NCBI RefSeq assembly: GCF_002307355.1
Contig: NZ_CP017481.1
Coordinates: 1,674,001 to 1,738,000, forward strand
Reading direction: 5' to 3'
Source: Pectobacterium polaris
GTDB lineage: Bacteria; Pseudomonadota; Gammaproteobacteria; Enterobacterales; Enterobacteriaceae
Length of the DNA stretch: 64,000 nucleotides
The position numbers and the translations under genes are program-made. How positions within the stretch are numbered: position 1 is the first letter of the stretch; each line of letters opens with the position of its first letter. This document shows, piece after piece, positions 43,868 to 64,000 of this stretch. A model generated the notes under the pieces. The model saw nothing but the letters and a program-made list of their open reading frames with translations. It was not told the DNA's origin and did no database searches.

Positions 43868-44584
43868 ATGCTTTCTGCTTTTATTGATGATGTTGAATGG
43901 ATTACTTTTCCACGGGCAACGGACGGTGCCGCCTACCCAGGTATTACTGCTCGCTGCCATTTCCATTTGTCCGCCTACGACGACGCGCTTTTTGCCGAGG
44001 CGAACATTCCTTTCTCCGACGCGCTAGAGCGCGCCGTACCGAAACGACGTGCCGAATTTCTGGCTGGACGCTGTGTGGCCAAACACGTGTTGAACAAGCT
44101 TGAACACCCTGGTTTTGTTCTGCATAGCGGGGAAGACCGCTCGCCGCAGTGGCCGGGCAATATTGCCGGTTCGCTGAGCCATAACAAAGACAGCGTACTC
44201 TGCGCCGCCCATTTACGGAGCGATGCGCTATCGTGCGTGGGCGTTGATATCGAAGGGTTTATGTCCGACGAGCGTGCGCAGTCGCTGTGGCCCGGCATCA
44301 TTGGCGACGAGGAATTCCAATGGTTTCATGAGCGGGATGAGGCATTTAGCTGTTTGCTAACGATCAGCTTCTCGGCGAAGGAGAGCCTGTTCAAGGCGCT
44401 TTACCCACAGGTGCGGCACTATTTTGATTTTCTGGATGCTCGGCTGGTGGCGCTGGATATCACCAAACGCGAGTTCGAGCTAGAACTGCTGACGGATCTG
44501 ACACCGACGTTTTACGCCGGACGCCGTTTTAAAGGCGCGTATCTGTTAAGAGAGTACGACGTCACCACGTTTCTCTGCTGCTAA
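43868..44584 (+). CDS. entD: 4'-phosphopantetheinyl transferase, EntD family
   Basis: Transfers the phosphopantetheine arm from CoA to the carrier domains of the siderophore synthetases. Motifs: RR.EFLAGR region (PKRRAEFLAGRCVAKHVL), GSLSHNKDSVLCA, GVDIEGF (the Mg-binding GxDxE) and FSAKESLFKALYP. From ATG 43868 the protein has 238 residues; this start has GGAG upstream. A start at 43817 is possible and would add 17 residues. It faces the receptor gene tail to tail, as entD does near fepA in E. coli, and ends next to a terminator shared by the region. Confidence 0.9.
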   Translation: MLSAFIDDVEWITFPRATDGAAYPGITARCHFHLSAYDDALFAEANIPFSDALERAVPKRRAEFLAGRCVAKHVLNKLEHPGFVLHSGEDRSPQWPGNIAGSLSHNKDSVLCAAHLRSDALSCVGVDIEGFMSDERAQSLWPGIIGDEEFQWFHERDEAFSCLLTISFSAKESLFKALYPQVRHYFDFLDARLVALDITKREFELELLTDLTPTFYAGRRFKGAYLLREYDVTTFLCC

Positions 44585-44605
44585 AAAAGCCCGCGTTAGC
44601 GGGCT
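44583..44605 (-). terminator. Rho-independent terminator of the TonB-dependent receptor
   Basis: AGCCCGC and GCGGGCT pair around a 4-base loop and, on the minus strand, are followed by six T residues, 12 bp after the receptor stop. It lies 4 bp from the entD stop on the other strand, where no T run follows. Confidence 0.8.
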
Positions 44606-44616
44606 AGAGTCATTCA

Positions 44617-46578
44617 TCAGAACTTATAGCTCACGCCGCCGTACACCGTACGTCCAGACAGGAAGTAGTCGTTGTTGGTAGCGACGTAATCCCGTTTTTC
44701 GTTGGTCAGGTTTGTGAGGCCCAGTTTCAGGTCCACATTTTTAACCGGCGTATAGGTAGCACCGATATCCACGGTATTGAAGCCGCGTGTCTTGCTGCCT
44801 TCTTTATCAAACAGATACTGGTTACCCGTGTACTGGTAAGAAATATAGGTTGATAAGTTATCCAGTGCTTGCCAGTTCAACTGCGTGTTAACCGTATTTT
44901 TCGGTGTTTGCTTCAAGCGCATTTTGGTTGTGCGGTCTTCGGCATCGACGATGGTCCAGTTGGTGGTCCAATTTAAATCATCTGTCACATCGACCCAGAA
45001 CGAAGTTTCAATCCCCTGAATTCTCGCCTTATTCACATTGATGTAGCTTATTCTTGTCATTCCAGGCAGTCGTGTTTCTGTCTGGATCATATCTTTTATG
45101 TCGTTGTTAAACAGAGTAACGCCTGCCCCGAAGCGCTCTGCTTCATAGGCGGTACCAAGTTCATAACTTACCGCAGTCTCTGGTTTAAGATCGGGATTTC
45201 CGACTTTCTGGCAACCACCACGGCAGTCAACTATTGAGTAACCTTTTGTTGATTGGGCCAGCGTTGGTGCTTTGTAGGCTTTGCTGACCCCCCCTTTTAT
45301 TACCCAGTTGTCCGTCAGGCTGTAGGTTGCGTAAGCGCGTGGACTTAACTCAGTTCCATAGACCTCATGTTGGTCGACGCGGCCTGCAAAAGTTAATGCC
45401 AAATCGCCAAGTTTAAATTCGTCTTGTAGGAAAATAGCCCCTTGGCTGACATCAACGCCTCCGCCGGGTAGGTTCATCGTGTGTTTTAGCGACGTGAGAC
45501 GATACTCGCCACCCCCAGTCAGCAGGTGATCGCCCAGATAGCCAGAAATTTGGCCATCGATAGTATGGTTATCCTGTGTCGTATCTGCTCTGCCGCCTTT
45601 GAGCTCTGAGTTATCCATTAGCTTGACGTTTTCATAGTAGTAGCGCAGTCGCGTGTCGATATTCTCCCAACTACCGTTGTGTGTTAACCCTAGGCCAAGA
45701 CGATCCATTTTTTGGATATTACGTTTTGCTACACCGTAGTTGTTCCAGTCTACATCTCGGTCATCTTTGGTATAGGTGACATCAAAGTCCAGGCTTTGTC
45801 GATCATCAATCAACCAACTTAGATTCCCTAACAGGTTGAGGTTGTCACGCTCTTCAAGTGCGTCAGTATTCGGATTTTTCGATAGTTCGGTACGCCAGGC
45901 ATCACGCTTTCCGCCATCAATAATCAAGCTACCCAACAGCGTATTCTCTATCAATGGGCCGCTGACGTAGCCGCTTAGGCGGTTGTGGTCGCCACCGGAA
46001 CCTTCGGTCGGTGCTTCAAAGTTATAGCCGATCTCACCCGTTGCTTTCTCTCCCGGCTGACGCAGAATCACGTTTACCACACCACCCAGCGCATCGGCTC
46101 CGTACAAAGAAGACATGGGGCCACGGATGACTTCAACGCGATCGATGGCGGAAACGGGGAGGGAAGCAAGATCAAAATCGTTAGCGTAGTCGCTGATCAA
46201 TGCTTCGCGTGAGTTAACCCGACGACCGTTGATCAGCAGTAAGGTGTAGTCCGCTTTCATGCCACGGATCTTGATTTCGTTACGGCCATAGGTAGATGAC
46301 GGATTGATGTTAATGCCCGGCAGCTTTTTCACCGCGTCGGTAACGTTGTTCACCGACATCTTTTCCAGCTCGGCGCGGGTGATGACAGAAACGCTAGCGG
46401 GGGCGCTTAGCGTGGTATGTTTCGTCTGTGTTGCTGTCACGACGATTTTTTCATCTGCCGCGTTTTCTGCCTGTGCGAGTGCAGGCAGTGCCAGTAACCC
46501 AGTCACCAGCAGGGCGCGATACACCTTGCTGTGTGGAAAATGATGATATGAAAAACGACTTTCCGGTTTTAGCTGCAT
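44617..46578 (-). CDS. TonB-dependent outer-membrane siderophore receptor (CirA/FepA type)
   Basis: Outer membrane receptor for a ferric catecholate. From ATG 46578 the precursor has 653 residues: signal peptide (residues 1-37, core YRALLVTGLLALPALAQA), a TonB box-like EKIVVTA, a plug domain with INGRRVNSREA, VEVIRGPMSSLYGADALGGVVNVILR, then a 22-strand-type barrel ending in GRTVYGGVSYKF with the C-terminal Phe. A longer in-frame start 25 codons upstream lacks signal-peptide character. The match is closest to CirA-like catecholate receptors. The gene follows the MFS exporter with 223 bp between and probably takes up the product of the adjacent cluster. Confidence 0.88.
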   Translation of the reverse strand: MQLKPESRFSYHHFPHSKVYRALLVTGLLALPALAQAENAADEKIVVTATQTKHTTLSAPASVSVITRAELEKMSVNNVTDAVKKLPGININPSSTYGRNEIKIRGMKADYTLLLINGRRVNSREALISDYANDFDLASLPVSAIDRVEVIRGPMSSLYGADALGGVVNVILRQPGEKATGEIGYNFEAPTEGSGGDHNRLSGYVSGPLIENTLLGSLIIDGGKRDAWRTELSKNPNTDALEERDNLNLLGNLSWLIDDRQSLDFDVTYTKDDRDVDWNNYGVAKRNIQKMDRLGLGLTHNGSWENIDTRLRYYYENVKLMDNSELKGGRADTTQDNHTIDGQISGYLGDHLLTGGGEYRLTSLKHTMNLPGGGVDVSQGAIFLQDEFKLGDLALTFAGRVDQHEVYGTELSPRAYATYSLTDNWVIKGGVSKAYKAPTLAQSTKGYSIVDCRGGCQKVGNPDLKPETAVSYELGTAYEAERFGAGVTLFNNDIKDMIQTETRLPGMTRISYINVNKARIQGIETSFWVDVTDDLNWTTNWTIVDAEDRTTKMRLKQTPKNTVNTQLNWQALDNLSTYISYQYTGNQYLFDKEGSKTRGFNTVDIGATYTPVKNVDLKLGLTNLTNEKRDYVATNNDYFLSGRTVYGGVSYKF

Positions 46579-46684
46579 GTCAAAGACCCCATCAAAGAGT
46601 GGAAAAAATATCCCCGTAAATAGCGTGTTGTATTGCGTATATTGCCGACCCACTCGTACGTGAATCGATCGGTTTATTGCCCTG

Positions 46685-48061
<1,377 letters not shown>

Positions 48062-48136
48062 GACAGGCTCACATTTAGACACAGTTAGTAAAATATTTGC
48101 GCAGTCTAGCGCAGCTTAATTTTCCTGACAATGAAT

Positions 48137-48155
48137 GATAAGTATTTTCATTATC
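48137..48155. promoter_or_regulatory. Fur box on the MFS side of the divergent promoter
   Basis: GATAAGTATTTTCATTATC matches 15 of 19 positions of the Fur consensus. It lies 76 bp upstream of the MFS ATG. Confidence 0.7.
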
Positions 48156-48338
48156 ATCTGTGATGTGGGTTTTATAATCAATACATTCCATTTGCTAATC
48201 ATTATCCATTCTGAAACATACACAAAAAAATTGATTAACATCAATTTAACCCCTAATTACTGGGCGTGAATTACCATTCTGTGGAAGGATTGACCGAACA
48301 CGTTACTTCAGTGTAATTTAACTGCGCTTAATATAAAT

Positions 48339-48357
48339 GATAATGATTTTAATAATC
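48339..48357. promoter_or_regulatory. Fur box on the entC side of the divergent promoter
   Basis: GATAATGATTTTAATAATC matches 15 of 19 positions of the Fur consensus, 36 bp before the entC start. Overlapping registers extend it through AATCATT. Confidence 0.75.
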
Positions 48358-48392: not shown

Positions 48393-49589
48393 GTGGATAC
48401 ACTGATTACAGAAACTGAAGCATCTAGCGGGCTAACCTATTCGGAACAAACCGCTTTTTTATATGCATCGGAACACCGAAGCCTTTCTACTTCTGGCTTA
48501 TTTGAACGTATTTCTTCCCCTGTTTGTGTTCCGGGCTCGCACGATGACAGGCTTAGCCCTGCAATCGCGCAGGCATTCCAGCGAGCGCGTCAGGCAGGGC
48601 AGTCGCTGCCTATTGTTGTGGGGGCGATTCCCTTTGATACCACGCAACCGTCTTGTCTCTATATCCCTGATAGTTATACCGTTACGACGAAGTCTGAACT
48701 CGTCAGCCGTGCCCGTAAGCACACGGCTGCGGGTCCTACCGCGTTAACGTTAAACAGCGTCCCGGACGAATGTCAGTTCAAGTCCATCGTGGCAGAGGCC
48801 GTTGAGCGCTTCCGCCGTGGTGAACTTAGCAAAGCGGTGCTGTCACGTATTCTGGACATTGAGCTGGCGAGCCCCGTTAAGGCGCAAACGATCCTCAATA
48901 ACCTGATGGTGCAGAACGCGGGTGGCTATCACTTCTCACTGCCGCTGCCGGATGGTTCGGTCTTGCTGGGGGCGAGCCCGGAACTGCTGCTGCGTAAGCA
49001 GGGGAACGTCATTGTTTCTAATCCGCTGGCGGGATCGGCGCGACGAATGAACGATGAACATCTGGATTACCTCAACAGTCAGCGCCTGCTGAAATCGGGC
49101 AAAGACAAGCACGAACATAAGCTGGTGGTGGACGACATTCGCCAACGCTTGATGCCGCTGTGCGCGTCGTTAACGATTCCATCGGTCCCTTCGCTGATGC
49201 ACACCGCCTCCATGTGGCACCTGTCTACCGCTATTCGCGGTGAACTGGCGAACCCAGAGATGACGGCGCTTCAGGTCGCCTGCCAGCTCCATCCGACCCC
49301 CGCACTGTGCGGCTTCCCAACGCAGGAAGCACGTCAACTGATCGCCGAGCTGGAACCGCACGATCGTGGCGTATTCAGCGGCATCGTCGGCTGGTGTGAT
49401 GCCAACGGCGATGGTGAATGGGCGATAGCGATTCGCTGCGGCACCATTAAACACAACAAAGTCCGTCTGTTTGCTGGCGCGGGCATTGTTGAGGCATCCG
49501 TCCCCGAGGATGAATGGGCTGAAACCGCCGCCAAATTAAACACGATGCTGAATGCGTTTGGGCTTAACTCAGGTGTGGATGGACTATGA
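48393..49589 (+). CDS. entC: Isochorismate synthase (EntC/DhbC/AmoC type)
   Basis: Converts chorismate to isochorismate, the first step toward 2,3-dihydroxybenzoate. The 398-residue protein uses a GTG start with AGGAG 7 nt upstream. Motifs of the chorismate-utilising fold: [48 protein letters not shown] and the C-terminal [21 protein letters not shown]. Its stop overlaps the entE ATG (ATGA). First gene of the entC-entE-entB-NRPS1-entA-NRPS2-NRPS3 operon behind a Fur box. Confidence 0.93.
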
Positions 49590-51229
49590 GCATTGAATTT
49601 ACGCCCTGGCCAGAGGAACTGGCACAGCGTTATCGCGACAAGGGATACTGGACCGGCCTGCCGTTGACGGATGCCTGGGAGCGCCATCTGGCGACGCAGC
49701 CCGACGCCATTGCGGTGGTGTGCGGCGAGCGGCAGTGGAGCTATCGGGAACTGGATCGACAGTCTTCCGCACTGGCATCGCGCCTGACGGAAAGCGGCCT
49801 GCGCTGTGGCGACACCGCGCTGGTACAGTTGCCGAACGTGGCCGAGTTCTACCTGACCTTTTTTGCGTTGCTGAAAATGGGCGTCGCGCCAGTTAACGCA
49901 CTGTTCAGCCATAACAAGCTGGAGCTGCTGTCGTACGCCACGCAGATCGAACCGCGCTTGTTGATCGCCTCGGCTGAACATTCACTGTTTGGCAACGGTG
50001 AATTTCTGGATCGGCTACAGACGCAGGTTCCCCGTCTGCAAACGGTGGTGATGCTCGGCGACAGCCCGCTGGGGCACAGTCTGTCAGACTGGTTGCAGCC
50101 GCGCGCGTCAACCAGCCAGTATCAGCCTTCTGCGCCGGGGCAGGTGGCTTTCTTCCAGCTTTCTGGCGGCAGTACCGGCACGCCGAAGCTGATTCCCCGC
50201 ACCCATGACGACTATTACTACAGCGTGCGCCGCAGCGTGGAAATTTGCGAGCTTACGCCGCAAACCCGCTACCTGTGTGCCTTGCCCGCGCCGCATAACT
50301 TCCCGTTAAGTTCGCCCGGTTCGCTCGGCGTGTTTTACGCCGGTGGACGCGTCGTACTGGCGCCAGATCCGGGGGCGATGACCTGCTTCCCGCTGATCGA
50401 ACGCCATCAGATCGATATTACCTCGCTGGTGCCGCCCGCTGCTGCGCTGTGGATCCAAGCGGCCGAACAGTTTGGTGGCGCGCTGCGTAGCCTGAAAATC
50501 TTGCAGGTGGGCGGTGCGAAGCTGAGTGAAACCGTCGCACGCCGTATTCCAGCGGTGTTGGGCTGCCAGCTACAGCAGGTGCTCGGTATGGCGGAAGGGC
50601 TGGTGAACTACACCCGACTGGACGACAGCGATGAGCACACCTTCACGACGCAAGGCTATCCGATGAGCCCGGACGATGAAGTGAAAGTGTTGGACATCGA
50701 CGGTAATCCGGTGCCGAGAGGCGAAGCGGGTCTGCTGGCGACGCGCGGCCCGTATACTTTCCGCGGCTATTACCGCAGCCCGGAACACAATGCCCGCGCC
50801 TTCGACAGTGAAGGTTTCTACCATTCGGGCGATGTGGTGCAGATGACCGAAGATGGCTATTTATGCGTGGTCGGACGGGAGAAAGATCAGATTAACCGAG
50901 GCGGTGAAAAGATTGCCGCGGAAGAGATCGAAAATCTGCTGCTCAAGCATGACGGCATTCTCCATGCCGCGCTGGTGTCCATGCCCGATCCGATTATGGG
51001 CGAAAAGAGCTGCGCTTTTCTGGTGGTCAGCGATTCCTCGCTGAAAGCCATCACGTTAAGAAAATATCTTCGCAATCAGGGTATTGCTGAATTCAAACTG
51101 CCGGACCGCTTCGAGATGATCGACACCTTACCCGTTACGCCGGTCGGCAAGATTGATAAGAAATCACTCCGTCAGCGCATCCAGACCCAACTTAGCACTC
51201 AAGCCGAACGTAGTATTCAAAACCAATAA
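49586..51229 (+). CDS. entE: 2,3-Dihydroxybenzoate-AMP ligase (EntE/DhbE/AmoE type)
   Basis: Activates 2,3-dihydroxybenzoate with ATP and loads it onto the aryl carrier domain of EntB. 547 residues. It starts with the family [22 protein letters not shown] region and has the adenylate motif [25 protein letters not shown] (around residues 190-212), ACHFNFP-type region [11 protein letters not shown], the [17 protein letters not shown] motif and the C-terminal Lys in [12 protein letters not shown]. Overlaps entC by 4 nt and is followed by entB 10 nt later. Confidence 0.94.
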
Positions 51230-51239
51230 GGATTTTGTG

Positions 51240-52115
51240 ATGGCAATCCCTTCTATTGCTTCTTATCCCCTGCCGCGCGCACAGGATTTCCCTGAGAATA
51301 AAGTTTCCTGGGCGTTTGAACCCGAGCGCGCGGTGCTGCTGATTCACGACATGCAGGACTATTTCGTGAATTTCTATGGTGCGGACAGCCCGCTGGCGCA
51401 GCAGTTGATTGAGAACATTGTGGCGTTGCGAACCTACTGCAAAGCACAGGGGATTCCGGTGGTGTATACCGCGCAGCCGAACGAGCAAAGTGCGGCCGAC
51501 CGTGCGCTGCTGAACGACATGTGGGGCGCAGGGCTGAACAATCATCCTGAAAAACAGCGCGTCGTGAACGCGCTGACACCGGATGAGCACGACACGGTGC
51601 TGGTGAAGTGGCGCTACAGCGCATTCCACCGTTCACCGCTGGAACCGATGATGAAAGAGATGGGCAAAGATCAGCTGATTATCTGCGGCGTTTACGGGCA
51701 TATCGGCTGCATGATTACCGCGACGGATGCCTTTATGCGCGACATCAAGCCGTTCATGGTCGGCGATGCAGTGGCGGATTTCTCACTTCAGGAACACCAG
51801 ATGGCGCTGAAATATGTGGCGACGCGCGTCGGACGGGTGGTTAGCACGGCAGAACTCACAGGAGCAAAAATGGCACAGGCACTGACGAAACAAGGACTGA
51901 GAGCGCACCTGCTGACCTTGATCGACGAAGAAGAGGATCAGTTCGATGAAGATGAAAATCTGATCGACTACGGTTTGGATTCGGTGCGCATGATGTCACT
52001 GCTGACTGAATGGCGTAATCAGGGCGTCACGCTGAGCTTTGTCGATCTGGCGCGTAACCCTAGCCTGAATGCCTGGTGGGCGCTGATCGAAAAACAGCAG
52101 GGAGCCGCATCATGA
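51240..52115 (+). CDS. entB: Isochorismatase with C-terminal aryl carrier domain (EntB/DhbB/AmoB type)
   Basis: The N-terminal domain (residues ~1-210) hydrolyses isochorismate to 2,3-dihydro-2,3-dihydroxybenzoate; catalytic-region segments include AVLLIHDMQDYFV and GVYGHIGCMITATDAFMRDI. The C-terminal aryl carrier domain (residues ~215-291) carries the phosphopantetheine Ser in IDYGLDSVRMMSL, about residue 247. ATG 51240 is preferred over an upstream start that would lie inside entE. The stop overlaps the NRPS1 ATG. Confidence 0.94.
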   Translation: MAIPSIASYPLPRAQDFPENKVSWAFEPERAVLLIHDMQDYFVNFYGADSPLAQQLIENIVALRTYCKAQGIPVVYTAQPNEQSAADRALLNDMWGAGLNNHPEKQRVVNALTPDEHDTVLVKWRYSAFHRSPLEPMMKEMGKDQLIICGVYGHIGCMITATDAFMRDIKPFMVGDAVADFSLQEHQMALKYVATRVGRVVSTAELTGAKMAQALTKQGLRAHLLTLIDEEEDQFDEDENLIDYGLDSVRMMSLLTEWRNQGVTLSFVDLARNPSLNAWWALIEKQQGAAS

Positions 52116-55100: not shown

Positions 55101-55255
55101 TGCAGACCATCCAGATCGTCAACCGTCTGGCTGCCGAATTTTCCGTCAGCATCAAGGTGTCTGATGTGTTCGATCATCCTCAGCTCAGCGACTTCTGCCG
55201 CTATCTGGACGACAGGCTGTCACAGGATGAAAACAGCGTGGAAATGGTGTGGTAG
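52112..55255 (+). CDS. Nonribosomal peptide synthetase 1, C-A-T (AmoF-like, Lys-type A domain)
   Basis: A 1047-residue single module. Condensation domain residues ~1-430 with HHIALDG at 141; adenylation domain ~450-940 with FTSGSTGLPKGV (~609), FDASIEE (~654), YGPTE (~752); carrier domain with Ser ~995 in LGGQSLQ. There is no thioesterase, so unlike EntF it passes its product on. Reading pocket residues by eye against GrsA gives D-A-E-D-I-G-T-V-V-K; the two acidic positions (239, 278) suit a basic residue and the string resembles lysine codes. The tail (SQDENSVEMVW) is acidic, fitting a docking partner for NRPS2. ATG overlaps the entB stop (ATGA). Confidence 0.88.
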   Translation: MKPLSVAQRGLWLGHALNDDKATFNTAECIAFDGKVDIEAMLSAIRQAVMECECLYCQFVEVAGEHADQPEIGFVASQLPVPIGVLPIIELLPAPMKDEEQTIRQWAREEIARPLDLLNGLPCRFALLCGEKRDFLYSCVHHIALDGFGTTMLFQRIAQIYTALTAGQPVAVAEFGPFSEVLEEEQQRDASGQTAQARDFWLETLNAMPEPASFSEKKAPIAARFLRQSSVLPTDIWQPLTALCEGNKISWPDLFLAMLATHLKLVSGSDRLTFGMMVMNRIGSASLTVPSMQMNIVPLCIQVDEQADFVTLAQQVARTKRTLRRHQHYRYEHLRRDLNRVGGEQRLFGPLINIMPFDHPLNYGSLSSSTLNLSAGPVEDLTIEIHFKPDGTPVLDFDANPACYSAEALASLQETLFTLLQRWLAQPQQTSGELLGRWLREERELALITSREPEPFVEPVLTAIAKQARKNPHHPALTQRDRQYSYQQLLDLSGQAAAALHERGVQPGERIGIMLNRSPETIICLLSVMQCGAVYVPLDPEQPHERQQHIIQIAGLRTIVTQADYQHRLASVFSGEIVLAGHLLSSSAQAAALPPVEARDGQIAYVMFTSGSTGLPKGVEIGASALDHFTAAARQRYGLRATDRVLQFAPFNFDASIEEIFATLTSGATLVLRTDEMLESIPTFVEQVEEQAITLLDLPTAFWNEWVVGLKTGTLTMPSALRAIIIGGEAVYPEQLAQWQRHAPNTLRLINTYGPTETTVVATSCDLQTQSAEVAQLPIGLPLAGVNALILAAGDRPAAEGELVLLGPTLAAGYIGTEHTAFTQIAVGDQALPAYRTGDRVRLEKGQLLYLGRMDNEFKISGYRIQPGEVEAHLLAQPDVDEACVQGIVYPNGVRRLVAFVATKAGEIDARALKQRLGSVLPPAMIPTDYRAFRQLPKTGSNKVDRKRLLAEYRDEAPAQALANETENRVSAIWQQILGVSGIQSRDNFFELGGQSLQTIQIVNRLAAEFSVSIKVSDVFDHPQLSDFCRYLDDRLSQDENSVEMVW

Positions 55256-55260
55256 GGAAA

Positions 55261-56031
55261 ATGATGAACAAGGCACAACCTCTTCAGTTTGATTTCAGCG
55301 GCCAGACCGTCTGGGTTACGGGTGCGGCGAGCGGCATTGGCGAAAGCATTGCCCGCCAGTTTGTCGCGCTGGGCGCGAACGTGATCGGCTTCGACCGCGC
55401 ATTCCGACATCAGGATCATCCGTTTACCTGTGTGACGCTGGATATCAGCGAGCCGGACAGCGTGACGGCGGTCTGTCGCCAGCAGCTGGCGGAAACGGGA
55501 CTCGACGTTCTGGTCAACGCGGCCGGGATTCTGCGTCTGGGTGATATCGACGCGTTGAGCGTCGATGACTGGCATCAGTGTATTAACGTCAATGCCTCCG
55601 GTGCGTTTTACCTGCTAAACGCACTGGTTCCGCATTTCAAGCAGCAGCGCCGTGGCACGATTGTCTGCGTCGGCTCCAATGCCGCGCATGTGCCACGTCT
55701 ACAGATGGCGGCGTACTGCGCTTCGAAAGCGGCGCTTACCAGCCTGTCTCACTGCGCGGGTCTTGAGTTAGCGCCTTACGGCGTGCGCTGCAATCTGGTG
55801 TCGCCGGGATCGACGGATACGCCGATGCAGCGCGGCATGTGGCACAGCGCCGATGCCGAACAGCGCACTATCGCGGGCTTTCCTGACCAGTACAAACTGG
55901 GAATCCCGCTGGGCAAGATTGCTCAGCCGGAAGAGATTGCCAATACCGTGGTTTTTCTGGCTTCCGATCTGGCCAGCCACATCACCATGCAGGACGTGGT
56001 GGTGGATGGCGGGGCAACGCTGACGGCCTGA
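55261..56031 (+). CDS. entA: 2,3-Dihydro-2,3-dihydroxybenzoate dehydrogenase (EntA/DhbA/AmoA type)
   Basis: Short-chain dehydrogenase that oxidises the EntB product to 2,3-dihydroxybenzoate with NAD+. 256 residues from ATG 55261. It has the NAD-binding TGAASGIG, NAAG, and the catalytic Ser (SNAAHVP) with YCASK. A GTG 12 nt earlier would overlap the NRPS1 stop and is less likely. Its position between two synthetase genes is the same as amoA between amoF and amoG. Confidence 0.93.
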   Translation: MMNKAQPLQFDFSGQTVWVTGAASGIGESIARQFVALGANVIGFDRAFRHQDHPFTCVTLDISEPDSVTAVCRQQLAETGLDVLVNAAGILRLGDIDALSVDDWHQCINVNASGAFYLLNALVPHFKQQRRGTIVCVGSNAAHVPRLQMAAYCASKAALTSLSHCAGLELAPYGVRCNLVSPGSTDTPMQRGMWHSADAEQRTIAGFPDQYKLGIPLGKIAQPEEIANTVVFLASDLASHITMQDVVVDGGATLTA

Positions 56032-56053: not shown

Positions 56054-59000
56054 ATGAAGGATATCGTAACGCTGTTAAAGCAGCTGGAACGGCAGGGCGT
56101 TCGTCTGGCGTTGAATGCACAGGGACAGCTGATTTCGCAGTCCAACAAAGACGCGATCACGGCAGACATTGGGCGCACGATTAAGGAAAACAAAGACGCC
56201 ATTGTGCGCTGCCTGACGGCGCAGCAGGCGTTTGAGCGCCCCATCACGCCGCAGAATGCGACGTCTGGCCCGCTGTCATCATCGCAAAGCGGACTGTGGT
56301 TTATTGAACAGTACGAAGAGCAGTCACACCTCTACAATATGCCGGTCTATTTTCGCCTGACCGGCACGCTGGATGTGGGCGCGCTGGAGTTTGCCTTTGA
56401 CGCGCTGGCGCAGCGCCATGCCAGCCTGCGTACCCGCTTTGTGGTCAATGAACAGGGCAAGGGTGAACAGCGTATCGATGCCTATCAACCGTTTGTGATA
56501 CAGCATGATGACTTCTCGCTGCTGCCGGAAGCTGAACGGGAAGTGCGCTTGCAACAGCAGGTAAAAGCGGAAATCAGCCGCCCGTTCGAGCTCACGGCAG
56601 GCGATCTCACCCGCGTGCGGCTGGTGAAGATGAGTGAACGGGTGCATGTGTTGATGATCACCCAGCACCATATTATTTCCGATGGCTGGTCGGTGAAGAA
56701 TATGTTTGCGGACTTCAAACCGGCTTTTCTGGCCTGTCAAAACCGTCAACCTCATCCCGTCGAACCGACTCAGCTTAACTATATCGACTACGCACACTGG
56801 TTCAATTCCGCCTCGTTTCTGGATTATCACAACGAGTTCAAGCCGTTCTGGGTTGAGCGACTGACGGGGATCCCCGAGGTGCACAGCCTGCCGCTGGATA
56901 AACCGCGTCCGGCGCACCAGAACAGCGGCGGTGAGGTGATCTTCTCCGCGATCAACAACGATCTGTGGGATAAATTCAAACGCCTGTGTCAGCGCTACAA
57001 TACGTCTAACTTCATTGGCCTGCATGCGGTGTTCTCCCTGATGCTGGCGCGCATCAGCGGCGAGAAAGATATCGTCATTGGTTCGCCGCTGGCCTACCGC
57101 GAGCGGCCGGATATCGAAGACGTCGTCGGCTTTTTCGTTAACACTATCGTGCTGCGCACCCAGTTGCAGGACAGCCAGAGCTTCGTCGATTACCTGCAAT
57201 ATTGTCGCGAGCAGGATTTGTCGGCTTTCGATCATCAACTTTACCGTTTTGAAGCGCTGAGCGAGGCGATCGGCTCCGATCGCACCACCGCGATCAACCC
57301 GATCTTCCAGGTGATGCTGGTGTATCAGGCCAAAGTGGATTTCAACGATCTGATCCCCGGCTGTGATGCGGCGGAAGAAACGTCGCCCGTGTTGCCTGCC
57401 AAGACCGATATTTCGGTCAAGGTGACGGAGCTGATGGGCGAGGTGCGATTGGACTGGCTATTTGCCACCGCGCTGTTTGAGCGCCAGACGATTCAGTATT
57501 ACGCTGACCGCTTTATCCGGCTGATTGAGGCCGTGGTTGAGGCACCGGAAACCGATGTCTGGCATCTGCCGCTGATGGAAGCGGAGCGATTTGCTGCCGT
57601 GCTGGGGGAAAGTCAGCAACTGCCGCGTAGCTATCCGCAGCCGCAGCTGACGGTAACCGACGTGATTGAAGCCATCGCCCAGCGCGATCCCCAGCAGCTG
57701 GCGATAGCCTTTGATGGCGAACAGCGCACCGACACGCTGACGTACGCTGAGCTGAACAGGCAGGCGAATCAACTGGCGCACTGGCTGCACCGTCAGGGGC
57801 TGGGTGAACAGTCGCTGGTTGGCGTGCTGGCGAAACGCGATCGCTACTTTGTCATTGCGCTGCTGGCCGTCTGGAAAGCGGGTGCCGCCTATGTTCCGCT
57901 GGATCCCGACTATCCGCCTGAGCGGCTGCGCCACATCATTACCGATGCCAATCTTGCCGTCATTCTCGGCGGTGATGGGCAACAGCTGGCGCAGTGGTCT
58001 GCCGAACAGTGCATCGATCTGACCGATCCTAATGTTGTCGCACAGTGGCACGATCTGCCGGGCGATGAACCGCCTGCCATTCCGCGCCATGCACAACAGC
58101 TGGCGCAGGTGATCTACACCTCGGGATCGACCGGTCTGCCGAAAGGCGTCATGATCGAACACGGTTCGCTGATCAATCTGCTGGACGATCATCGCGATCG
58201 TATCGATTTCACGCCGCAAAGCACCATGTTCAACTGCATGTCGCTCTCGTTTGACGCCGGTAACATGACGACGCTGCTGCCGCTGAGCAGCGGTGGCACG
58301 CTGGCGTTTGGCGAGCCTAACGATCGGGCGATTGTGCAGGCCGAACAGGCGGGCGCGACGCATCTGATCCTGCCGACGGCGCTAATGTCGATTCTCGATC
58401 CACAGCACGTTAATGGCATTCAGGCAATTGGCATGGGCGGTGAAGCCTGCCCGAACGCCGTGGTGGAAAGCTGGGCCGATAAGGTCGCGCTGTACAACAT
58501 GTACGGGCCGACGGAGTGTACCGTCACCGCGTTGAGCACCCGCCTGCGTAAAGGTCAGCCTGTCACCATCGGTAAACCCATCACGCATATTCAGGCGCTG
58601 ATTCTGGATACGGCTGGGCAACTGTGTCCGGCGGGCGTACCGGGCGAACTGTGTCTTGCCGGGCTTGGGCTGGCGCGTGGCTACCTCAATCAGCCACAGA
58701 TGACGGCCAGCCGCTTTGAACACATCACGCTGCATGATGTGAATAATGTCGAACACGGCACGGCGACGTTGCGCATTTATCGCACGGGTGATAAGGCCAG
58801 GCTGCTAAACAACGGCGACTATGAATACTGTGGCCGAATCGATGAGCAGATCAAGCTGCGCGGCTACCGCATCGAACCAGGTGAAATCGAGGCACAGCTG
58901 GCGGCGGTCTGTCCGTCGCTGAAGCAGGTTAAAGTCATTGTGGCACAGATCGGGAACCGTCCGGCGCTGGTCGCCTATGGCACAGTGAAAGCCGGTAGCA

Positions 59001-62000
59001 ACAGCCCAGAGCCTGCCGCTGTGCTGATTGATGTCGCGAAGCACCTGCCGGAATACATGGTGCCTTTCCGACTGATTCTGCTGGAAGACATGCCGCTGAC
59101 GCCGAACGGCAAACTCGATACGAAACAGCTGCCGCCGGTGCTGGAAGCCAGCGAGGGCGACGGTGAAGCCGATAATCCGCTGGAAGCGGACGTACTGGCG
59201 ATTTGGCGCAGCGTGCTGAATACGCCGCTGGGCGTTGAGGATGATTTCTTCCGCTTAGGCGGCGATTCCATCCTTAGTATTCAACTGACCACCCGTCTGC
59301 GCAGCGCGGGCTATGTCTGCACGGTGAAAGACGTTTTCGAAGCAAAAAGCGTGCGGCGTCTGTGCCGCGTGCTGGCGCAGAATAACCGTGACACAGGGAT
59401 TGTGGCGGAGCAGGGCACGCTGGAAGGCGAATTCGCGCTGCTGCCGATTCAGCGCTGGTTTATGGAACAGCCGCTGGCACGTCCTGAACACTGGAATCAG
59501 GCGGCGATGATCCAATTGCCGGACGTGGATACGGAACGGCTGACGACGATGTTGCAGGCGCTGATGGCGCAGCATGACGCGCTGCGTCTGGCTTGTGATG
59601 CCGACGGACAACGCTATCTGACGGATGTGCCTTGCCCTACTGTATCGACGCTGGATTATCGCCAGCTCGGTGACGACGGCCTGCAACAGGCGTTTACCGC
59701 ATTGCAGAGTGAATTCGATCCCGCTCAGGGAAGAACGATGGCTGCCGCACTGGTACGCCACCATCCGCAGGCGGACACGGCGGTGTTCCTCGCTTTCCAC
59801 CATCTGGTGATCGATGCCGTGTCCTGGCGCATTCTGGTCGACGATCTGGAACGGCTGTACCTCGGTGAACCGCTGTTGCCGAAAACATCGAGCTATCGCC
59901 AGTGGGGCACGGCGCTGAGTAACTATGCTACACAGCATGCGGAACAGTTGGCGTACTGGCAGGCGCAGGAAGACGGCGTGGATCAGACAGCGCTGCTGGC
60001 GGCGAAAGATCCGCAGGGCCAGGCCAGTGCGGCGATTCTGACGCTGGATGCGGAAACCACAGGCCAGCTGGTGAGCGAGGCCAACCGTGCCTTTAATACC
60101 GAAGTCAGCGATCTGTTGCTGGCAGCGCTGACCCGTACGCTAAACGATCTCGGCTGGGGCGACAAAGCACGCATCATGCTGGAAGGGCACGGCCGAGAAG
60201 CGATTGATCCGATGCTGGATGTCAGCCGCACGGTGGGGTGGTTTACCAGCACCTATCCGGTGTGTCTGCAAGATCGGCCCGACTGGGCTTCCCTGATTCA
60301 ATCCAGCAAGGAACAGCTGCGTCAGGTGCCGGATAAAGGCGTCGGGTTTAATCCGCTGCGCTACCATCACCCGCAGGGTAGCTCGCTAACGCTGTCACCG
60401 ATTGTGTTCAACTATCTCGGGCTGTCGGTTCAGGCGGCTGGCGTGTGGCGTCCGGTGGATGTCGCACCGGGAGGCTGCGTCGCGCCGGAGAATAAACCGG
60501 CAGAGGTTATCAGCCTTCACGGCGGTATTGCGGGCGGACAGCTGACGCTGCGTCAGGTCGGTTGCCTCAACCCGCGTGACAGCGAACGCCTGATGGCGCG
60601 ACTGACGGAAAATCTGCGTGCGCTGACGGCAGCCTGTCTGGCACAGATGAATCACGGAACCGCCTTTACCCCTAGCGACTTCCCAGCGGTGACGCTGAGC
60701 CAGACGCAGCTCGACAGCCTGTCGCAGCGTTATGACATCGACACGCTGCTGCCGCTGTCATCGCTCCAGCAGTCGATGTTGTATCACCGCCTGCGCTGTC
60801 CGCAGGACGATGCTTACCATCTGCAAACGCCGGTTCGCTATGCGCAGGCGCTGGATGTGGAAGGTTATCGTCAGGCATGGCAGCGTCAAATTCAGCGTTT
60901 CCCGGCGCTGCGTGCCGCGCTGGAAAGCGAGTGTGCCAGCGTGCAGGTGATTGTGACGCAGACAGACCTGCCTTTCTACTATCAGGATGTGGCGCAGGAG
61001 GCCGAGCCGCACGTGGTCATCGAGCGCTATCGCCAGCAGGATTTACGCACCGGATTTAACTTGTCGCAGCCGCCGCTGTTGCGCATTGCCTGTTTCCGTT
61101 TGGGTGAGCAGGATTATCGGGTGCTCCTGAGCTGTCACCACAGCGTGATTGATGGCTGGAGTGGCCCACAGCTGCTGGGCGCGGTACATCGTGATTATCT
61201 TCTGTTGATGAACAGCCAAATGCTGATGAATGGTGAAACACCCGCAATTCAGGTGGATCGTGCCTATGTGGATCATGCACAGCACGCGGTGGCGCAGCAG
61301 CCCGCTGTCGATGCTTTCTGGCAGCAGCGGCAGCCGCTGCTGGCGCAGACGAACGATGTGGCGATGCTGTTTGCGGCGGCGGGGAAACGCGCCGATCTCA
61401 GCCAGCATCTGACGCAGGTTGAACCGCAGGTCACCGGCGTGAGCCTGAATGAGCAGGATCAGGCGGCACTCATTGCCTTTGCCCGCGAGGTGGGCGTCAC
61501 GCACAGCATTATCGCGCAATACGCCTGGCACCGGCTGCTGGCGCGGTCGACTGGCGATGCGGTCAGCATTGTCGGGAACGTGCTGTCGGGCAGGGAAAGT
61601 CCGGTGGAGGGCGTGGCGAGCAGCGTGGGTCTGTACATCAACAGCCTGCCGCTGGCGCTGAGCTGGCAGCAGCCGGTATCGCTGCAACAGCATCTGGTGC
61701 AGTTGCAGAATGAGCTGATGGCGATGAATCAGCATGCTACGCAGTCGCTGATTGCGCTGACGGCCGGACGCTCGCGTCTGTTCAACAGCCTGTTTATTTA
61801 TGAAAATTATCCAGGAGCGAAAGCAGAACAGAGCCAACGCGCTGATGAGCCGCATCGGTTATCTCCCGAATTTTCAGCTGCTTATGAAAAAGTCGAGATG
61901 CCGCTAAATCTGGTGGTGCGTGAGCAAGCGGGCTGCATGCTGTTGCGCTTCGAGTTTGATGCCGATGTGCTGGACAGTGCGCAGGCGCGTCGGGTGCTGA

Positions 62001-62416
62001 TGCGCTGGCATGACGAAGTGGTGGCGCTGGTGAATAGTTCACCGCAGCAGCCAGCCGAGATTATTGGACATCATAAGACGGCCACCGCCGTGGCGGCATG
62101 CGACACAACGCAGGAAACTGCGCTGGCGAATCACGCTGGCTTGCCTGATTCGCCGTCTGCCCAGTCGCTGTTGCGCGTGTGGGCGCAGGCGCTACATCTC
62201 AGTGAATCTATCGTCAGTGAATCCGGCCTCTGGTCGCAGACGCTGTGTGAAAGCGGTGTCGATTCGCTCCAGCGTATTGCACTGGCACAGGCATTGAGCC
62301 GGGCGTTAGCGCAGCCGGTGAGCGTGGCGTTATTACAACGCTACCCTTCACCGCAGGCGCTGAGCGGGTATCTGGCACAATCGAGGGTTACCGCCAATGA
62401 GGAAACGCTGTCATGA
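56054..62416 (+). CDS. Nonribosomal peptide synthetase 2, docking-C-A-T-E-C-T (AmoG-like)
   Basis: A 2120-residue protein. Residues ~1-55 are a TubC-type docking domain (DIVTLLKQLERQGVRLAL...). Then C with HHIISDGWS (~204); A with YTSGSTGLPKG (~688), FDAGNM (~733), YGPTE (~817); T with Ser in LGGDSIL (~1071); E with HHLVIDAVSW (~1249), EGHGRE and TVGWFTSTYPV; a second C with HHSVIDGWS (~1695); and a terminal T with Ser in CESGVDSLQR (~2070). The E domain predicts a D-residue. The last C-T pair has no A domain, so its carrier must be loaded in trans. The A-domain pocket reads D-A-M-I-G-G-M-V-T-K by eye, a roomy, uncharged pocket I cannot assign, compatible with Phe/Trp. Confidence 0.88.
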   Translation: MKDIVTLLKQLERQGVRLALNAQGQLISQSNKDAITADIGRTIKENKDAIVRCLTAQQAFERPITPQNATSGPLSSSQSGLWFIEQYEEQSHLYNMPVYFRLTGTLDVGALEFAFDALAQRHASLRTRFVVNEQGKGEQRIDAYQPFVIQHDDFSLLPEAEREVRLQQQVKAEISRPFELTAGDLTRVRLVKMSERVHVLMITQHHIISDGWSVKNMFADFKPAFLACQNRQPHPVEPTQLNYIDYAHWFNSASFLDYHNEFKPFWVERLTGIPEVHSLPLDKPRPAHQNSGGEVIFSAINNDLWDKFKRLCQRYNTSNFIGLHAVFSLMLARISGEKDIVIGSPLAYRERPDIEDVVGFFVNTIVLRTQLQDSQSFVDYLQYCREQDLSAFDHQLYRFEALSEAIGSDRTTAINPIFQVMLVYQAKVDFNDLIPGCDAAEETSPVLPAKTDISVKVTELMGEVRLDWLFATALFERQTIQYYADRFIRLIEAVVEAPETDVWHLPLMEAERFAAVLGESQQLPRSYPQPQLTVTDVIEAIAQRDPQQLAIAFDGEQRTDTLTYAELNRQANQLAHWLHRQGLGEQSLVGVLAKRDRYFVIALLAVWKAGAAYVPLDPDYPPERLRHIITDANLAVILGGDGQQLAQWSAEQCIDLTDPNVVAQWHDLPGDEPPAIPRHAQQLAQVIYTSGSTGLPKGVMIEHGSLINLLDDHRDRIDFTPQSTMFNCMSLSFDAGNMTTLLPLSSGGTLAFGEPNDRAIVQAEQAGATHLILPTALMSILDPQHVNGIQAIGMGGEACPNAVVESWADKVALYNMYGPTECTVTALSTRLRKGQPVTIGKPITHIQALILDTAGQLCPAGVPGELCLAGLGLARGYLNQPQMTASRFEHITLHDVNNVEHGTATLRIYRTGDKARLLNNGDYEYCGRIDEQIKLRGYRIEPGEIEAQLAAVCPSLKQVKVIVAQIGNRPALVAYGTVKAGSNSPEPAAVLIDVAKHLPEYMVPFRLILLEDMPLTPNGKLDTKQLPPVLEASEGDGEADNPLEADVLAIWRSVLNTPLGVEDDFFRLGGDSILSIQLTTRLRSAGYVCTVKDVFEAKSVRRLCRVLAQNNRDTGIVAEQGTLEGEFALLPIQRWFMEQPLARPEHWNQAAMIQLPDVDTERLTTMLQALMAQHDALRLACDADGQRYLTDVPCPTVSTLDYRQLGDDGLQQAFTALQSEFDPAQGRTMAAALVRHHPQADTAVFLAFHHLVIDAVSWRILVDDLERLYLGEPLLPKTSSYRQWGTALSNYATQHAEQLAYWQAQEDGVDQTALLAAKDPQGQASAAILTLDAETTGQLVSEANRAFNTEVSDLLLAALTRTLNDLGWGDKARIMLEGHGREAIDPMLDVSRTVGWFTSTYPVCLQDRPDWASLIQSSKEQLRQVPDKGVGFNPLRYHHPQGSSLTLSPIVFNYLGLSVQAAGVWRPVDVAPGGCVAPENKPAEVISLHGGIAGGQLTLRQVGCLNPRDSERLMARLTENLRALTAACLAQMNHGTAFTPSDFPAVTLSQTQLDSLSQRYDIDTLLPLSSLQQSMLYHRLRCPQDDAYHLQTPVRYAQALDVEGYRQAWQRQIQRFPALRAALESECASVQVIVTQTDLPFYYQDVAQEAEPHVVIERYRQQDLRTGFNLSQPPLLRIACFRLGEQDYRVLLSCHHSVIDGWSGPQLLGAVHRDYLLLMNSQMLMNGETPAIQVDRAYVDHAQHAVAQQPAVDAFWQQRQPLLAQTNDVAMLFAAAGKRADLSQHLTQVEPQVTGVSLNEQDQAALIAFAREVGVTHSIIAQYAWHRLLARSTGDAVSIVGNVLSGRESPVEGVASSVGLYINSLPLALSWQQPVSLQQHLVQLQNELMAMNQHATQSLIALTAGRSRLFNSLFIYENYPGAKAEQSQRADEPHRLSPEFSAAYEKVEMPLNLVVREQAGCMLLRFEFDADVLDSAQARRVLMRWHDEVVALVNSSPQQPAEIIGHHKTATAVAACDTTQETALANHAGLPDSPSAQSLLRVWAQALHLSESIVSESGLWSQTLCESGVDSLQRIALAQALSRALAQPVSVALLQRYPSPQALSGYLAQSRVTANEETLS

Positions 62417-64000
62417 CAGGGAACGATGAAGCCGTAGGGAACCCGCTGGCGGATATCCAACAGCCCACGGCCTTCGGGCAGCGGGTGGGTGCCGCGCACG
62501 GTGAACAGCGGCACAGCAGTGAGCTGATTCAGCACTATCCTGCTTCGCTGGTGAGCGCAGCATGGAGCTGGCTGCTGTACAAATATAGCGGTGAAGAGCA
62601 GGTGTGCGCCGCGTTCGTCACGGCCGATCTTCCTGACAACGTAAGGCCGCTGATCGTGCATTTTCACCAGCGCGATCGTCTCGTCAGCGAGTGGATCGCC
62701 GCTGTGGGATCGTCGTGCGATCCGCAGTCTGCACCAGAGATGCTGGCCGCAGATACCCAGCATGCGCTGTTTAGCAGCCTGCTGATCGTGGGGGAGAGTG
62801 CATCGTTACCTGTGGTAGTACAAAAAGCGGCGCAAAACGTGGCGCTGATCGTACAGGTTCAGAACGATCGGTTAATTCTGACGGCACCTGACGGGCAGTT
62901 CGACAATCGGCAGCTACAGCGTATTGCCCGCGATCTGACGCAGCTACTTGATGGCCTGCTGGCACCGCGCTGGGAACGGCTGGAACAGATTCGCCTCAGC
63001 CCACAGGTGGTGCCGCTACCAGACGGGACGACGACGCACGCGCTACATGATGAATTGCTGGCACGCCTTGCTCAGGAAGCGCGTCAGGATCGCGTGGCGA
63101 TCGTCTTTCAGGAGCGCGAAATACCCTATCGGGAGCTGTTGCAACGCGTGGCGCTGATTCAACAGGCGCTGGTTGCACAGGGCGTGACGGCTGGTCAGCG
63201 CGTGGGGCTGCACCTTAGCCGCCAGCCTGACACCGTTGCGGCGCTGTTGGCCTGTCTGTTTTCTCAGGTGACGTTTGTGCCGCTGGAGCCGGATTTTCCG
63301 GGGGAGCGTCTACAGGCGATTCAGCAGGAAGCGGCGTTGGCAGCGGTCTTGCAGGACGGTTATACCGGCGGCTCGCTGGCGTTTGACTGTCCGATACTGA
63401 ACCTCTGCGATTTACCGTACGCCGCCAGTGATTCCACGGCGAGCGTACAGCTGGCGCGGACTGGTGGGCCGGAAACCGCGGCCTACATGATGTTTACCTC
63501 CGGCTCGACGGGGAAACCAAAAGGCGTGGTGATTGGTCAGCGGGCGCTGCAAACCTTTATTCATGCCAGCGTCGATCGGCTGGCTTTAACGGATAAAGCC
63601 AACTGGCTGCTGATTACCACGCTGGCGTTTGATATCTCCATGCTGGAAGTGTTTGCGCCGCTGTGGGTCGGCGGTGTGCAGCACCTGACCACGCATGAGG
63701 AGTACAAAGATCCGCAGGCGGTCGCAGCGTATTTGCAGACTCGGCCGGAGATCAACATCTTGCAGGCCACGCCTGCGTTTTGGCGCATGATGTTCAAGGC
63801 GGGCTGGCAGGGTAAACCCGACTTGGTGGCGCTATGCGGTGGTGAAGCACTGGATCTGCGCTTGGCACAGCGTCTGGTCAGCCGTTGCAGGACGCTGTGG
63901 AATTGCTATGGGCCAACCGAAGCGACAATTTGGTCGCAGATGGCGCAGATTGATGGCGCGGCGTTGGAGAACCAGCACACGGTCGCGCTGGGCAACACGC
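62413..64000 (+). CDS. Nonribosomal peptide synthetase 3, partial (Gly-type A domain)
   Basis: Starts at an ATG overlapping the NRPS2 stop (ATGA) and runs off the end of the window. Residues ~1-205 resemble only part of a condensation-type domain (YPASLVSAAWSWLLYKYSG, then NVALIVQVQNDRLILTAPDG) and lack an HHxxxDG motif, so this region is probably not catalytic. An adenylation domain follows with FTSGSTGKPKGVV (~360), FDISMLEVF (~406) and YGPTEATIW (~498). The pocket residues read D-I-L-Q-L-G-C-I-W-K by eye, nine of ten matching the glycine code DILQLGLIWK. The gene continues beyond 64000. Confidence 0.85.
   Translation, partial: MTGNDEAVGNPLADIQQPTAFGQRVGAAHGEQRHSSELIQHYPASLVSAAWSWLLYKYSGEEQVCAAFVTADLPDNVRPLIVHFHQRDRLVSEWIAAVGSSCDPQSAPEMLAADTQHALFSSLLIVGESASLPVVVQKAAQNVALIVQVQNDRLILTAPDGQFDNRQLQRIARDLTQLLDGLLAPRWERLEQIRLSPQVVPLPDGTTTHALHDELLARLAQEARQDRVAIVFQEREIPYRELLQRVALIQQALVAQGVTAGQRVGLHLSRQPDTVAALLACLFSQVTFVPLEPDFPGERLQAIQQEAALAAVLQDGYTGGSLAFDCPILNLCDLPYAASDSTASVQLARTGGPETAAYMMFTSGSTGKPKGVVIGQRALQTFIHASVDRLALTDKANWLLITTLAFDISMLEVFAPLWVGGVQHLTTHEEYKDPQAVAAYLQTRPEINILQATPAFWRMMFKAGWQGKPDLVALCGGEALDLRLAQRLVSRCRTLWNCYGPTEATIWSQMAQIDGAALENQHTVALGNT

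What the first reader, a model, noticed from the sequence alone, without database searches (positions are those of the whole stretch)
43868..64000. Amonabactin-like catecholate siderophore cluster in a soft-rot enterobacterium
The order isochorismate synthase, DHB ligase, isochorismatase-ArCP, C-A-T synthetase, EntA, large synthetase is the amoC-E-B-F-A-G order I recall for Aeromonas amonabactin, not the ent order. Pocket residues read Lys-like in NRPS1 and Gly-like (9/10) in NRPS3; NRPS2 has an E domain and an unassigned roomy pocket. Amonabactins contain DHB, Lys, optional Gly and D-Phe or D-Trp, which fits piece by piece. Neighbouring EntD, MFS exporter, receptor and two Fur boxes complete a self-contained system. 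The product may be amonabactin or a new relative.
Basis: partly seen in the sequence, partly recalled or inferred. Interest (0 to 1): 0.85.

Follow-up and report, generated by a model that had tools for sequence, protein, structure and literature searches.

The report
Amonabactin-type siderophore genes in Pectobacterium
This soft-rot plant bacterium carries the gene set that Aeromonas bacteria use to build the iron-scavenging molecule amonabactin; papers on its genus call such a cluster 'enterobactin', a name that the genes read here do not support.

Summary
The cluster is real and intact: a complete amoCEBFAGH-type operon, not an enterobactin operon. Seven co-directional genes (48393 to window-equivalent 64527, past the window end) sit beside entD, a TonB receptor and an MFS exporter in a Pectobacterium genome. 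AmoF, AmoG and AmoH are 59, 56 and 55% identical to A. piscicola homologues (AmoH over 463 of 704 residues); AmoF and AmoG are 29 and 26% identical to E. coli EntF. Order C-E-B-F-A-G holds in 42 of 44 related loci; the other two are cut by contig ends. Adenylation codes equal the Aeromonas ones in AmoF (Lys) and AmoG (Phe/Trp) and differ by one residue in AmoH (Gly-like). The third synthetase, AmoH, is adenylation-only; no thioesterase follows it, and no EntF was found in the genome.

Full-length AmoG occurs in 23 of 25 genus genomes. Three papers call the genus's cluster enterobactin, one after an entA knockout; another of them lists 'amonabactin P 750' in passing. In the two genomes without AmoG the locus keeps entC, entE and entA but lacks entB, amoF, amoG and amoH, while a two-module thioesterase synthetase and an entB sit elsewhere: possibly an exchanged assembly line. 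The product is untested.

The parts
43817..44584 (+). entD-like phosphopantetheinyl transferase (255 aa), expected to activate the carrier domains
   Evidence: Pfam 4PPT_N and ACPS; 42% to the homologue at the A. piscicola locus, 33% to E. coli EntD
44617..46653 (-). TonB-dependent catecholate receptor, candidate ferric-amonabactin receptor
   Evidence: Pfam; 57-59% to receptors at two Aeromonas and one Photobacterium amo loci, 29% to E. coli FepA
46802..48082 (-). MFS exporter, candidate siderophore exporter
   Evidence: Pfam MFS_1; 55-56% to MFS genes at two Aeromonas loci and one Pseudomonas-type locus; best NCBIfam model MxcK, 185.4 bits against a cut-off of 525
48137..48155 (.). Fur-box-like site, 16 of 19, in the divergent promoter region
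   Evidence: none at 16 or more in 20 Markov shuffles of the window
48339..48357 (.). Fur-box-like site, 16 of 19, upstream of entC
48393..49589 (+). amoC/entC isochorismate synthase
   Evidence: Pfam; 46-50% to four amo-locus homologues and 46% to E. coli EntC
49586..51229 (+). amoE/entE DHB-AMP ligase
   Evidence: over the cut-off of two NCBIfam DHB-AMP ligase models
51240..52115 (+). amoB/entB isochorismatase with aryl carrier domain (motif GLDSVR)
   Evidence: Pfam; start and motif
52112..55255 (+). amoF: C-A-T module, code DAEDIGTVVK (Lys)
   Evidence: Pfam; same code in 43 of 43 related AmoF by alignment; 59% to A. piscicola AmoF, 29% to EntF
55249..56031 (+). amoA/entA 2,3-dihydro-DHB dehydrogenase
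   Evidence: over two NCBIfam equivalog cut-offs
56054..62416 (+). amoG: TubC docking-C-A-T-E-C-T, code DAMIGGMVTK
   Evidence: Pfam, motifs, 55-57% over 98-99% to proteins named Aeromonas AmoG, code
59405..60721 (+). epimerization domain within amoG (about residues 1118-1556), motif HHLVIDA
   Evidence: sequence matches to solved structures, motif
60776..62368 (+). terminal condensation and carrier domains within amoG with no adenylation domain between them (boundaries approximate, my estimate); motifs HHSVIDG and GVDSL
62413..64000 (+). amoH: stand-alone adenylation protein, code DILQLGCIWK; the gene runs on to window-equivalent 64527 (L006:7413-9527, 704 aa); about 210-residue N-terminal extension; no carrier, no thioesterase

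Best explanation
It is an iron-regulated amonabactin-type operon (amoCEBFAGH) of Pectobacterium. AmoC, AmoB and AmoA turn chorismate into 2,3-dihydroxybenzoate (DHB); AmoE loads DHB on the carrier of AmoB; AmoF loads Lys and joins DHB to it, and is used twice; AmoG loads Phe or Trp, epimerises it and receives the DHB-Lys pieces; AmoH activates Gly for optional insertion. EntD primes the carriers, the MFS protein exports the product, and the divergent TonB receptor takes the ferric complex back up. Shown here by sequence: gene content and order, domains, codes, Fur-like sites. Inferred from homology to Aeromonas: substrates, iterative and optional use, product, export and uptake. The most likely products are the four known amonabactins or very close relatives.
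For: AmoG 55-57% over 98-99% to proteins named AmoG in Aeromonas. Order C-E-B-F-A-G in 42 of 44 loci, C-E-B-F-A-G-H in 39 of 44; the five exceptions are four loci at contig ends and L042, which keeps a 113-aa amoH remnant. Codes equal to Aeromonas for AmoF and AmoG and 9 of 10 for AmoH. AmoF 59% to A. piscicola against 29% to EntF; receptor 57% against 29% to FepA. No thioesterase in the cluster; the genome's only PF00975 match over cut-off is in a PKS-NRPS that scores 423.6 bits against the EntF cut-off of 2400 and whose pocket differs from that of E. coli EntF. Fur-like sites. The Aeromonas pathway logic is described in PMC8949500 (four passages).
Against: No chemistry. Pectobacterium AmoH has a roughly 210-residue N-terminal extension that the two aligned Aeromonas AmoH lack, so it may behave differently. 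EntC, EntE and EntB are about as close to E. coli as to Aeromonas proteins, so the DHB genes do not discriminate. How the chain is released without a thioesterase and where Gly is loaded are not explained by the sequence; my idea for the latter was weakened. No NCBIfam model shown names AmoF, AmoG or AmoH (best 25 listed for each), so there was no curated cut-off to pass.
Confidence: 0.88

Rival explanations
1. It is the enterobactin cluster, as the Pectobacterium literature calls it: three DHB-Ser units cyclised by EntF.
For: Named so in PMC8431002, PMC10991766 and PMC6963963; the DHB genes match E. coli entC, E, B, A at 46-64%.
Against: AmoF and AmoG reach 433.6 and 307.8 bits against the EntF model's cut-off of 2400; their codes are unlike that of E. 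coli EntF. No thioesterase in the cluster. The only PF00975 thioesterase over cut-off in the genome lies about 112 kb away in a C-A-T-TE protein beside PKS genes: 423.6 bits against the EntF cut-off, 27% to EntF, different pocket. EntF as query has its best match in this genome in AmoF; three of its six matches there were not listed, being weaker.
Confidence: 0.04
2. A new siderophore relative: the same scaffold with a different residue or linkage, because of the extended AmoH or other changes.
For: AmoH has an N-terminal extension in Pectobacterium, two Photobacterium species and Motilimonas but not in the two Aeromonas, one Pseudomonas-type and one Photobacterium halotolerans proteins aligned; the synthetases are only 55-59% identical to Aeromonas.
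Against: AmoF and AmoG codes identical to Aeromonas, AmoH code differing by I/V only.
Confidence: 0.2
3. A chrysobactin- or vanchrobactin-type cluster (DHB-basic amino acid-Ser with thioesterase).
For: The soft-rot relative Dickeya makes chrysobactin (PMC8431002 passages), and AmoF is Lys-like.
Against: No second C-A-T-TE module in the cluster; AmoG and AmoH have the codes of Aeromonas AmoG and, but for one residue, AmoH. No chrysobactin cluster was fetched for comparison.
Confidence: 0.02
4. A myxochelin-type pathway (DHB-Lys-DHB released by a reductase).
For: AmoF's best NCBIfam model is MxcG (984.5 bits) and the MFS protein's is MxcK (185.4 bits).
Against: Both are below cut-off (2300 and 525), the MxcG match stops at profile position 1050 of 1442, and Pfam gives AmoF no domain after its carrier. 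That the missing part of MxcG is a reductase is recalled. Myxochelin would not need AmoG.
Confidence: 0.02

Closest known systems
Amonabactin cluster amoCEBFAGH of Aeromonas
   Same: Seven-gene order, domain architecture, AmoF and AmoG codes, stand-alone AmoH
   Different: 55-59% identity of the synthetases; AmoH has an N-terminal extension; exporter and receptor lie upstream rather than downstream; no siderophore ABC importer found beside it
Pectobacterium 'enterobactin' operon (ECA0481 entA, ECA0482 NRPS of P. atrosepticum)
   Same: By its published description a seven-gene operon, entCEBFA plus two NRPS genes (PMC8431002 passages)
   Different: The name; I fetched no record labelled P. atrosepticum. 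For P. betavasculorum NCPPB 2795, named in PMC10991766, locus L022 carries the amo-type cluster
Enterobactin cluster of E. coli
   Same: EntC, EntE, EntB, EntA and EntD functions
   Different: No EntF and no thioesterase; none of the annotated cluster genes is a Fes-type esterase; receptor 29% to FepA
Myxochelin synthetase MxcG
   Same: AmoF aligns with positions 4-1050 of the 1442-position model
   Different: AmoF lacks the rest of the model and is below its cut-off

Membership tests
Amonabactin (amo) cluster | Operon order amoC-E-B-F-A-G-H | tested here: met
Amonabactin (amo) cluster | AmoF is C-A-T with the Aeromonas Lys code | tested here: met
   DAEDIGTVVK in the window and in 43 of 43 related AmoF by alignment; the anchor method read 3 of 43 otherwise
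Amonabactin (amo) cluster | AmoG with the Aeromonas code (Phe/Trp) and an E domain | tested here: met
   DAMIGGMVTK shared with the Aeromonas rows. That AmoG takes Phe/Trp is from PMC8949500
Amonabactin (amo) cluster | AmoH, a stand-alone adenylation protein for Gly | tested here: met
   adenylation-only and same code but one residue. The Gly role rests on the recalled Gly code and recalled Esmaeel 2016
Amonabactin (amo) cluster | Iron regulation | tested here: inconclusive
   two Fur-like sites; no expression data for this strain
Amonabactin (amo) cluster | Receptor orthologous to FstC of A. salmonicida | tested here: inconclusive
   57% to receptors at Aeromonas amo loci; I did not match any of them to the name FstC
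Amonabactin (amo) cluster | Product is an amonabactin | not testable with these tools
   needs LC-MS
Enterobactin cluster | EntF synthetase (C-A-T-TE, Ser) | tested here: not met
Enterobactin cluster | Thioesterase for trilactone release, in the cluster | tested here: not met
Myxochelin | Full-length MxcG over its cut-off | tested here: not met

The most novel reading that the evidence does not exclude
Pectobacterium's catecholate siderophore is amonabactin rather than enterobactin across nearly all the genus, and one branch (probably P. wasabiae and P. parmentieri) has exchanged its assembly line: it lost entB, amoF, amoG and amoH, kept entC, entE and entA at the old locus, and now feeds their DHB to a two-module thioesterase-type synthetase encoded elsewhere with its own entB.
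Probability: 0.55. Interest if true: 0.6.

Novelty: new member of a known kind. Interest (0 to 1): 0.48.

Why it matters
Published work on a Pectobacterium entA mutant (reduced stress resistance, and reduced virulence on salicylic-acid-primed plants; PMC8431002, abstract and passages) is framed around enterobactin, which a cluster of this type would not be expected to make. A bis-catecholate amonabactin would have other iron-binding and receptor properties, so those phenotypes and competition with neighbours would need to be re-read. The cluster also gives a further lineage, in crop pathogens, in which to study the unusual iterative, alternative and optional assembly line.

Tried and rejected
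Idea weakened: that AmoH loads Gly onto the terminal carrier of AmoG. If so, clusters whose AmoG lacks the terminal C-T should lack AmoH. They mostly do not: 11 of 44 loci have the short AmoG (1517-1525 aa) and 10 of these 11 keep AmoH; the eleventh (L042) has a 113-aa remnant. The quick tree places A. diversa (short AmoG) with the other Aeromonas (long) and apart from the Pseudomonas/Stutzerimonas group, so the C-T part may have been lost twice (A. diversa is one of its long branches). The Gly loading site stays open.

Codes: the alignment misplaced two AmoH columns, so AmoH was re-read by sequence anchors: 38 of 40 loci read DILQLGC[IV]WK; two (L015, L038) were not read by the script, and I read the same residues by eye. 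The anchor script read 3 of 43 AmoF and 19 of 44 AmoG rows otherwise or not at all; for those two I rely on the alignment and, for AmoG, on the eight rows. The four-row alignment misplaces position 278 (AmoF reads L there instead of D), so I use it only for the gross difference between the PKS-NRPS and EntF. The code positions follow GrsA numbering as I recall it. 8 of 44 loci have DAMIAGMVTK in AmoG.

Structure of AmoH: the N-terminal extension is mostly at pLDDT 30-69, so I do not use it. Weak Pfam Condensation matches in the extensions of two Photobacterium AmoH (5.5e-5 and 2e-4, below cut-off) hint at a condensation-domain remnant; the window's AmoH gave none. AmoH lengths run from the first possible start codon and may overstate some Aeromonas proteins. 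Inverted repeats at 46600-46830: none. Plasmid search with entC: 25 records, none covering 80% of the query. The second PDB search (E 1e-300) was set too strict and gave nothing.

Full report
What is there. The window is G000:C1:1674001-1738000 of a 4.83-Mb single-contig genome. The large synthetase is 95% identical to a P. brasiliense protein and falls inside Pectobacterium in a quick tree, so the genome is taken as a Pectobacterium. From 43817 the genes are entD, then on the other strand receptor and MFS genes, then, after a divergent promoter region, entC, entE, entB, a C-A-T synthetase, entA, a 2120-aa synthetase and a 704-aa adenylation protein. The last gene leaves the window and ends at L006:9527, equal to window position 64527. 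After it come a DUF4034 gene and phosphonate genes.

Architecture. The 2120-aa protein is TubC docking-C-A-T-E-C-T: Pfam finds three condensation-type stretches, one adenylation and two carrier domains, solved-structure matches place an epimerase-type domain at about 1117-1556, and the motifs HHIISDG, LGGDS, HHLVIDA, HHSVIDG and GVDSL are intact. The 704-aa protein has an adenylation domain only. The first synthetase is C-A-T. No thioesterase domain was found in the cluster. In the whole genome the Pfam thioesterase model PF00975 has five matches and passes its cut-off at one place, a C-A-T-TE protein beside PKS genes about 112 kb after the cluster. That protein scores 423.6 bits against the EntF cut-off of 2400 and its pocket residues differ from EntF's. 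Other thioesterase families were not searched.

Comparison with Aeromonas. A protein search (7990 candidates scored, best 120 listed) gave AmoG-named Aeromonas proteins at 55-57% over 98-99% of the length. A scan of named genomes kept the best 80 of 121 relatives, 77 loci; 44 of these have a relative at 52% or more and were used in the counts, and the other 33 (28-33%) were dropped as generic synthetases. Among the 44, the order C-E-B-F-A-G is kept in 42 and C-E-B-F-A-G-H in 39. L018 and L028 start inside the cluster, L013 and L035 end at a contig end after AmoG, and L042 has an amoH remnant. The 44 come from Pectobacterium, Aeromonas, Photobacterium, Salinivibrio, Motilimonas, Pseudomonas, Stutzerimonas and one unclassified gammaproteobacterial MAG. 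Against E. coli, AmoF is 29% to EntF and 59% to A. piscicola AmoF; AmoG 26% against 56%; the receptor 29% to FepA against 57%; AmoH is 55% to A. piscicola AmoH over 463 residues. EntC, EntE and EntB do not discriminate.

Substrates. By alignment, AmoF has DAEDIGTVVK in the window and in 43 of 43 related loci that hold the gene; AmoG has DAMIGGMVTK in the window and 36 of 44 loci and DAMIAGMVTK in 8. By anchors, AmoH has DILQLGCIWK in the window and DILQLGC[IV]WK in 38 of 40 loci, two not read by the script. Where the two methods disagree is told under Tried and rejected. PMC8949500 (four passages seen) says that AmoG of A. hydrophila takes Phe or Trp, that the AmoE-AmoF part acts twice to link DHB-Lys onto Phe/Trp, and that Gly is optional. 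PMC5382913 (two passages) describes amonabactins as tetradentate bis-catecholates with Lys-Lys or Lys-Lys-Gly linkers. That amoH deletion removes the Gly forms is my recollection of the Esmaeel 2016 abstract and comes from no call.

Regulation and transport. Two Fur-like sites with 16 of 19 matches lie between the divergent mfs and entC genes; 20 Markov shuffles of the window gave none at 16 or more. Importer-like genes stand near the amo cluster in the four related loci whose flanks I read by eye (L014, L026, L042, L052, no family search). None was found among the annotated neighbours here. The genome has 16 FecCD matches elsewhere, so import could use one of those; which one is not known.

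Distribution. 23 of 25 genomes of the genus hold a full-length AmoG at 91-100%. In 295 genomes drawn from the wider family four hold one at 92-100%, in two genera; four further genomes have hits at 33-38% only. With E. coli EntF as query, three genus genomes (G003, G015, G023) have an EntF-like match at 45-48% that reaches the EntF C-terminus; a fourth, G007, has a 32% match over residues 6-1274 that I did not examine. The window's genome has six matches, the best being AmoF; the three that I found listed are AmoF, AmoG and the PKS-NRPS, and the other three are among weaker matches not listed.

Possible siderophore switch. G015 and G023 lack AmoG at the limit used. Their locus between nupC and the PEP mutase gene keeps entD, the receptor, entC, entE and entA at 82-96%, has a 148-152-aa piece matching the MFS protein, and no entB, amoF, amoG or amoH. 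Their only EntE match at E 1e-100 or better is at this locus. Elsewhere they carry an EntF-like protein, in G023 2862 aa with two adenylation, three condensation-type and two carrier domains and a thioesterase, 1874 bits against the EntF cut-off of 2400; in G015 it is split by the contig ends. Near it lie an EntB at 58-59% to the window's and a FepA-like receptor at 64% in both, and in G023 an EntS-like exporter and an enterochelin-esterase-type protein. G003 has AmoG and also an EntF-like protein of 2827 aa with the same domains, but its only EntB and EntE matches are beside its AmoG. EntC and EntA were not searched genome-wide. The simplest reading is that DHB made at the amo locus can serve a second synthetase, and that one branch then lost the amo peptide genes. 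PMC6963963 (seven passages) reports entF, entB and ECA0476 missing in P. wasabiae and P. parmentieri, which agrees.

Literature. PMC8431002 (abstract and 12 of 19 places shown) describes an entA (ECA0481) knockout in P. [quoted passage not shown] PMC10991766 (ten passages) lists 'amonabactin P 750' among predicted clusters of P. betavasculorum and, separately, an enterobactin synthesis cluster; the type strain's genome (L022, NCPPB 2795) holds the amo-type cluster. Paper searches for amonabactin with Pectobacterium (three papers listed, one relevant by title) and with Brenneria (the same paper) found no other that makes the link; they cover only the open-licence library.

Verdict. A new member of a known kind: a complete amonabactin-type cluster, flagged once by automated prediction in a sister species but generally called enterobactin in the papers seen. 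The product is a strong prediction, not a fact.

Noticed in passing
L093-L096, L098-L101 (G023 and G015): Amo locus reduced to entD, receptor, an exporter piece, entC, entE and entA, with a two-module thioesterase synthetase and an entB elsewhere: a possible exchange of siderophore assembly line.
   Followed up: partly
L097, L102 (G003): An AmoG-bearing genome that also has an EntF-like two-module synthetase with a Fes-type esterase beside it, while its only EntB and EntE matches are at the amo locus.
   Followed up: partly
L026, L027, L029, L030, L031, L032, L034, L041, L042, L052, L078: Short AmoG without the terminal C-T module, in Pseudomonas, Stutzerimonas, one MAG and Aeromonas diversa; AmoH is kept in 10 of 11.
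   Followed up: partly
L006:12794-19833 (beyond the window): PEP mutase, a TPP enzyme and a dehydrogenase directly followed by phnG, phnH, phnI, phnJ and an ABC gene: phosphonate-making and phosphonate-breaking genes side by side.
   Followed up: no
L008:9122-19998 (own genome, about 111-121 kb after the cluster): PKS-NRPS locus with KS-AT-KR, DH-carrier and C-A-T-TE proteins; possibly coronafacic-acid-like (recalled).
   Followed up: partly
L015, L019, L038 and the window's amoH: AmoH N-terminal extension of roughly 210-290 residues, a possible condensation-domain remnant, absent in the two Aeromonas AmoH aligned.
   Followed up: partly
G007:C23:8506-12267: A 1308-aa frame matching E. coli EntF at 32% over nearly its whole length in a genus genome that also has AmoG.
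   Followed up: no
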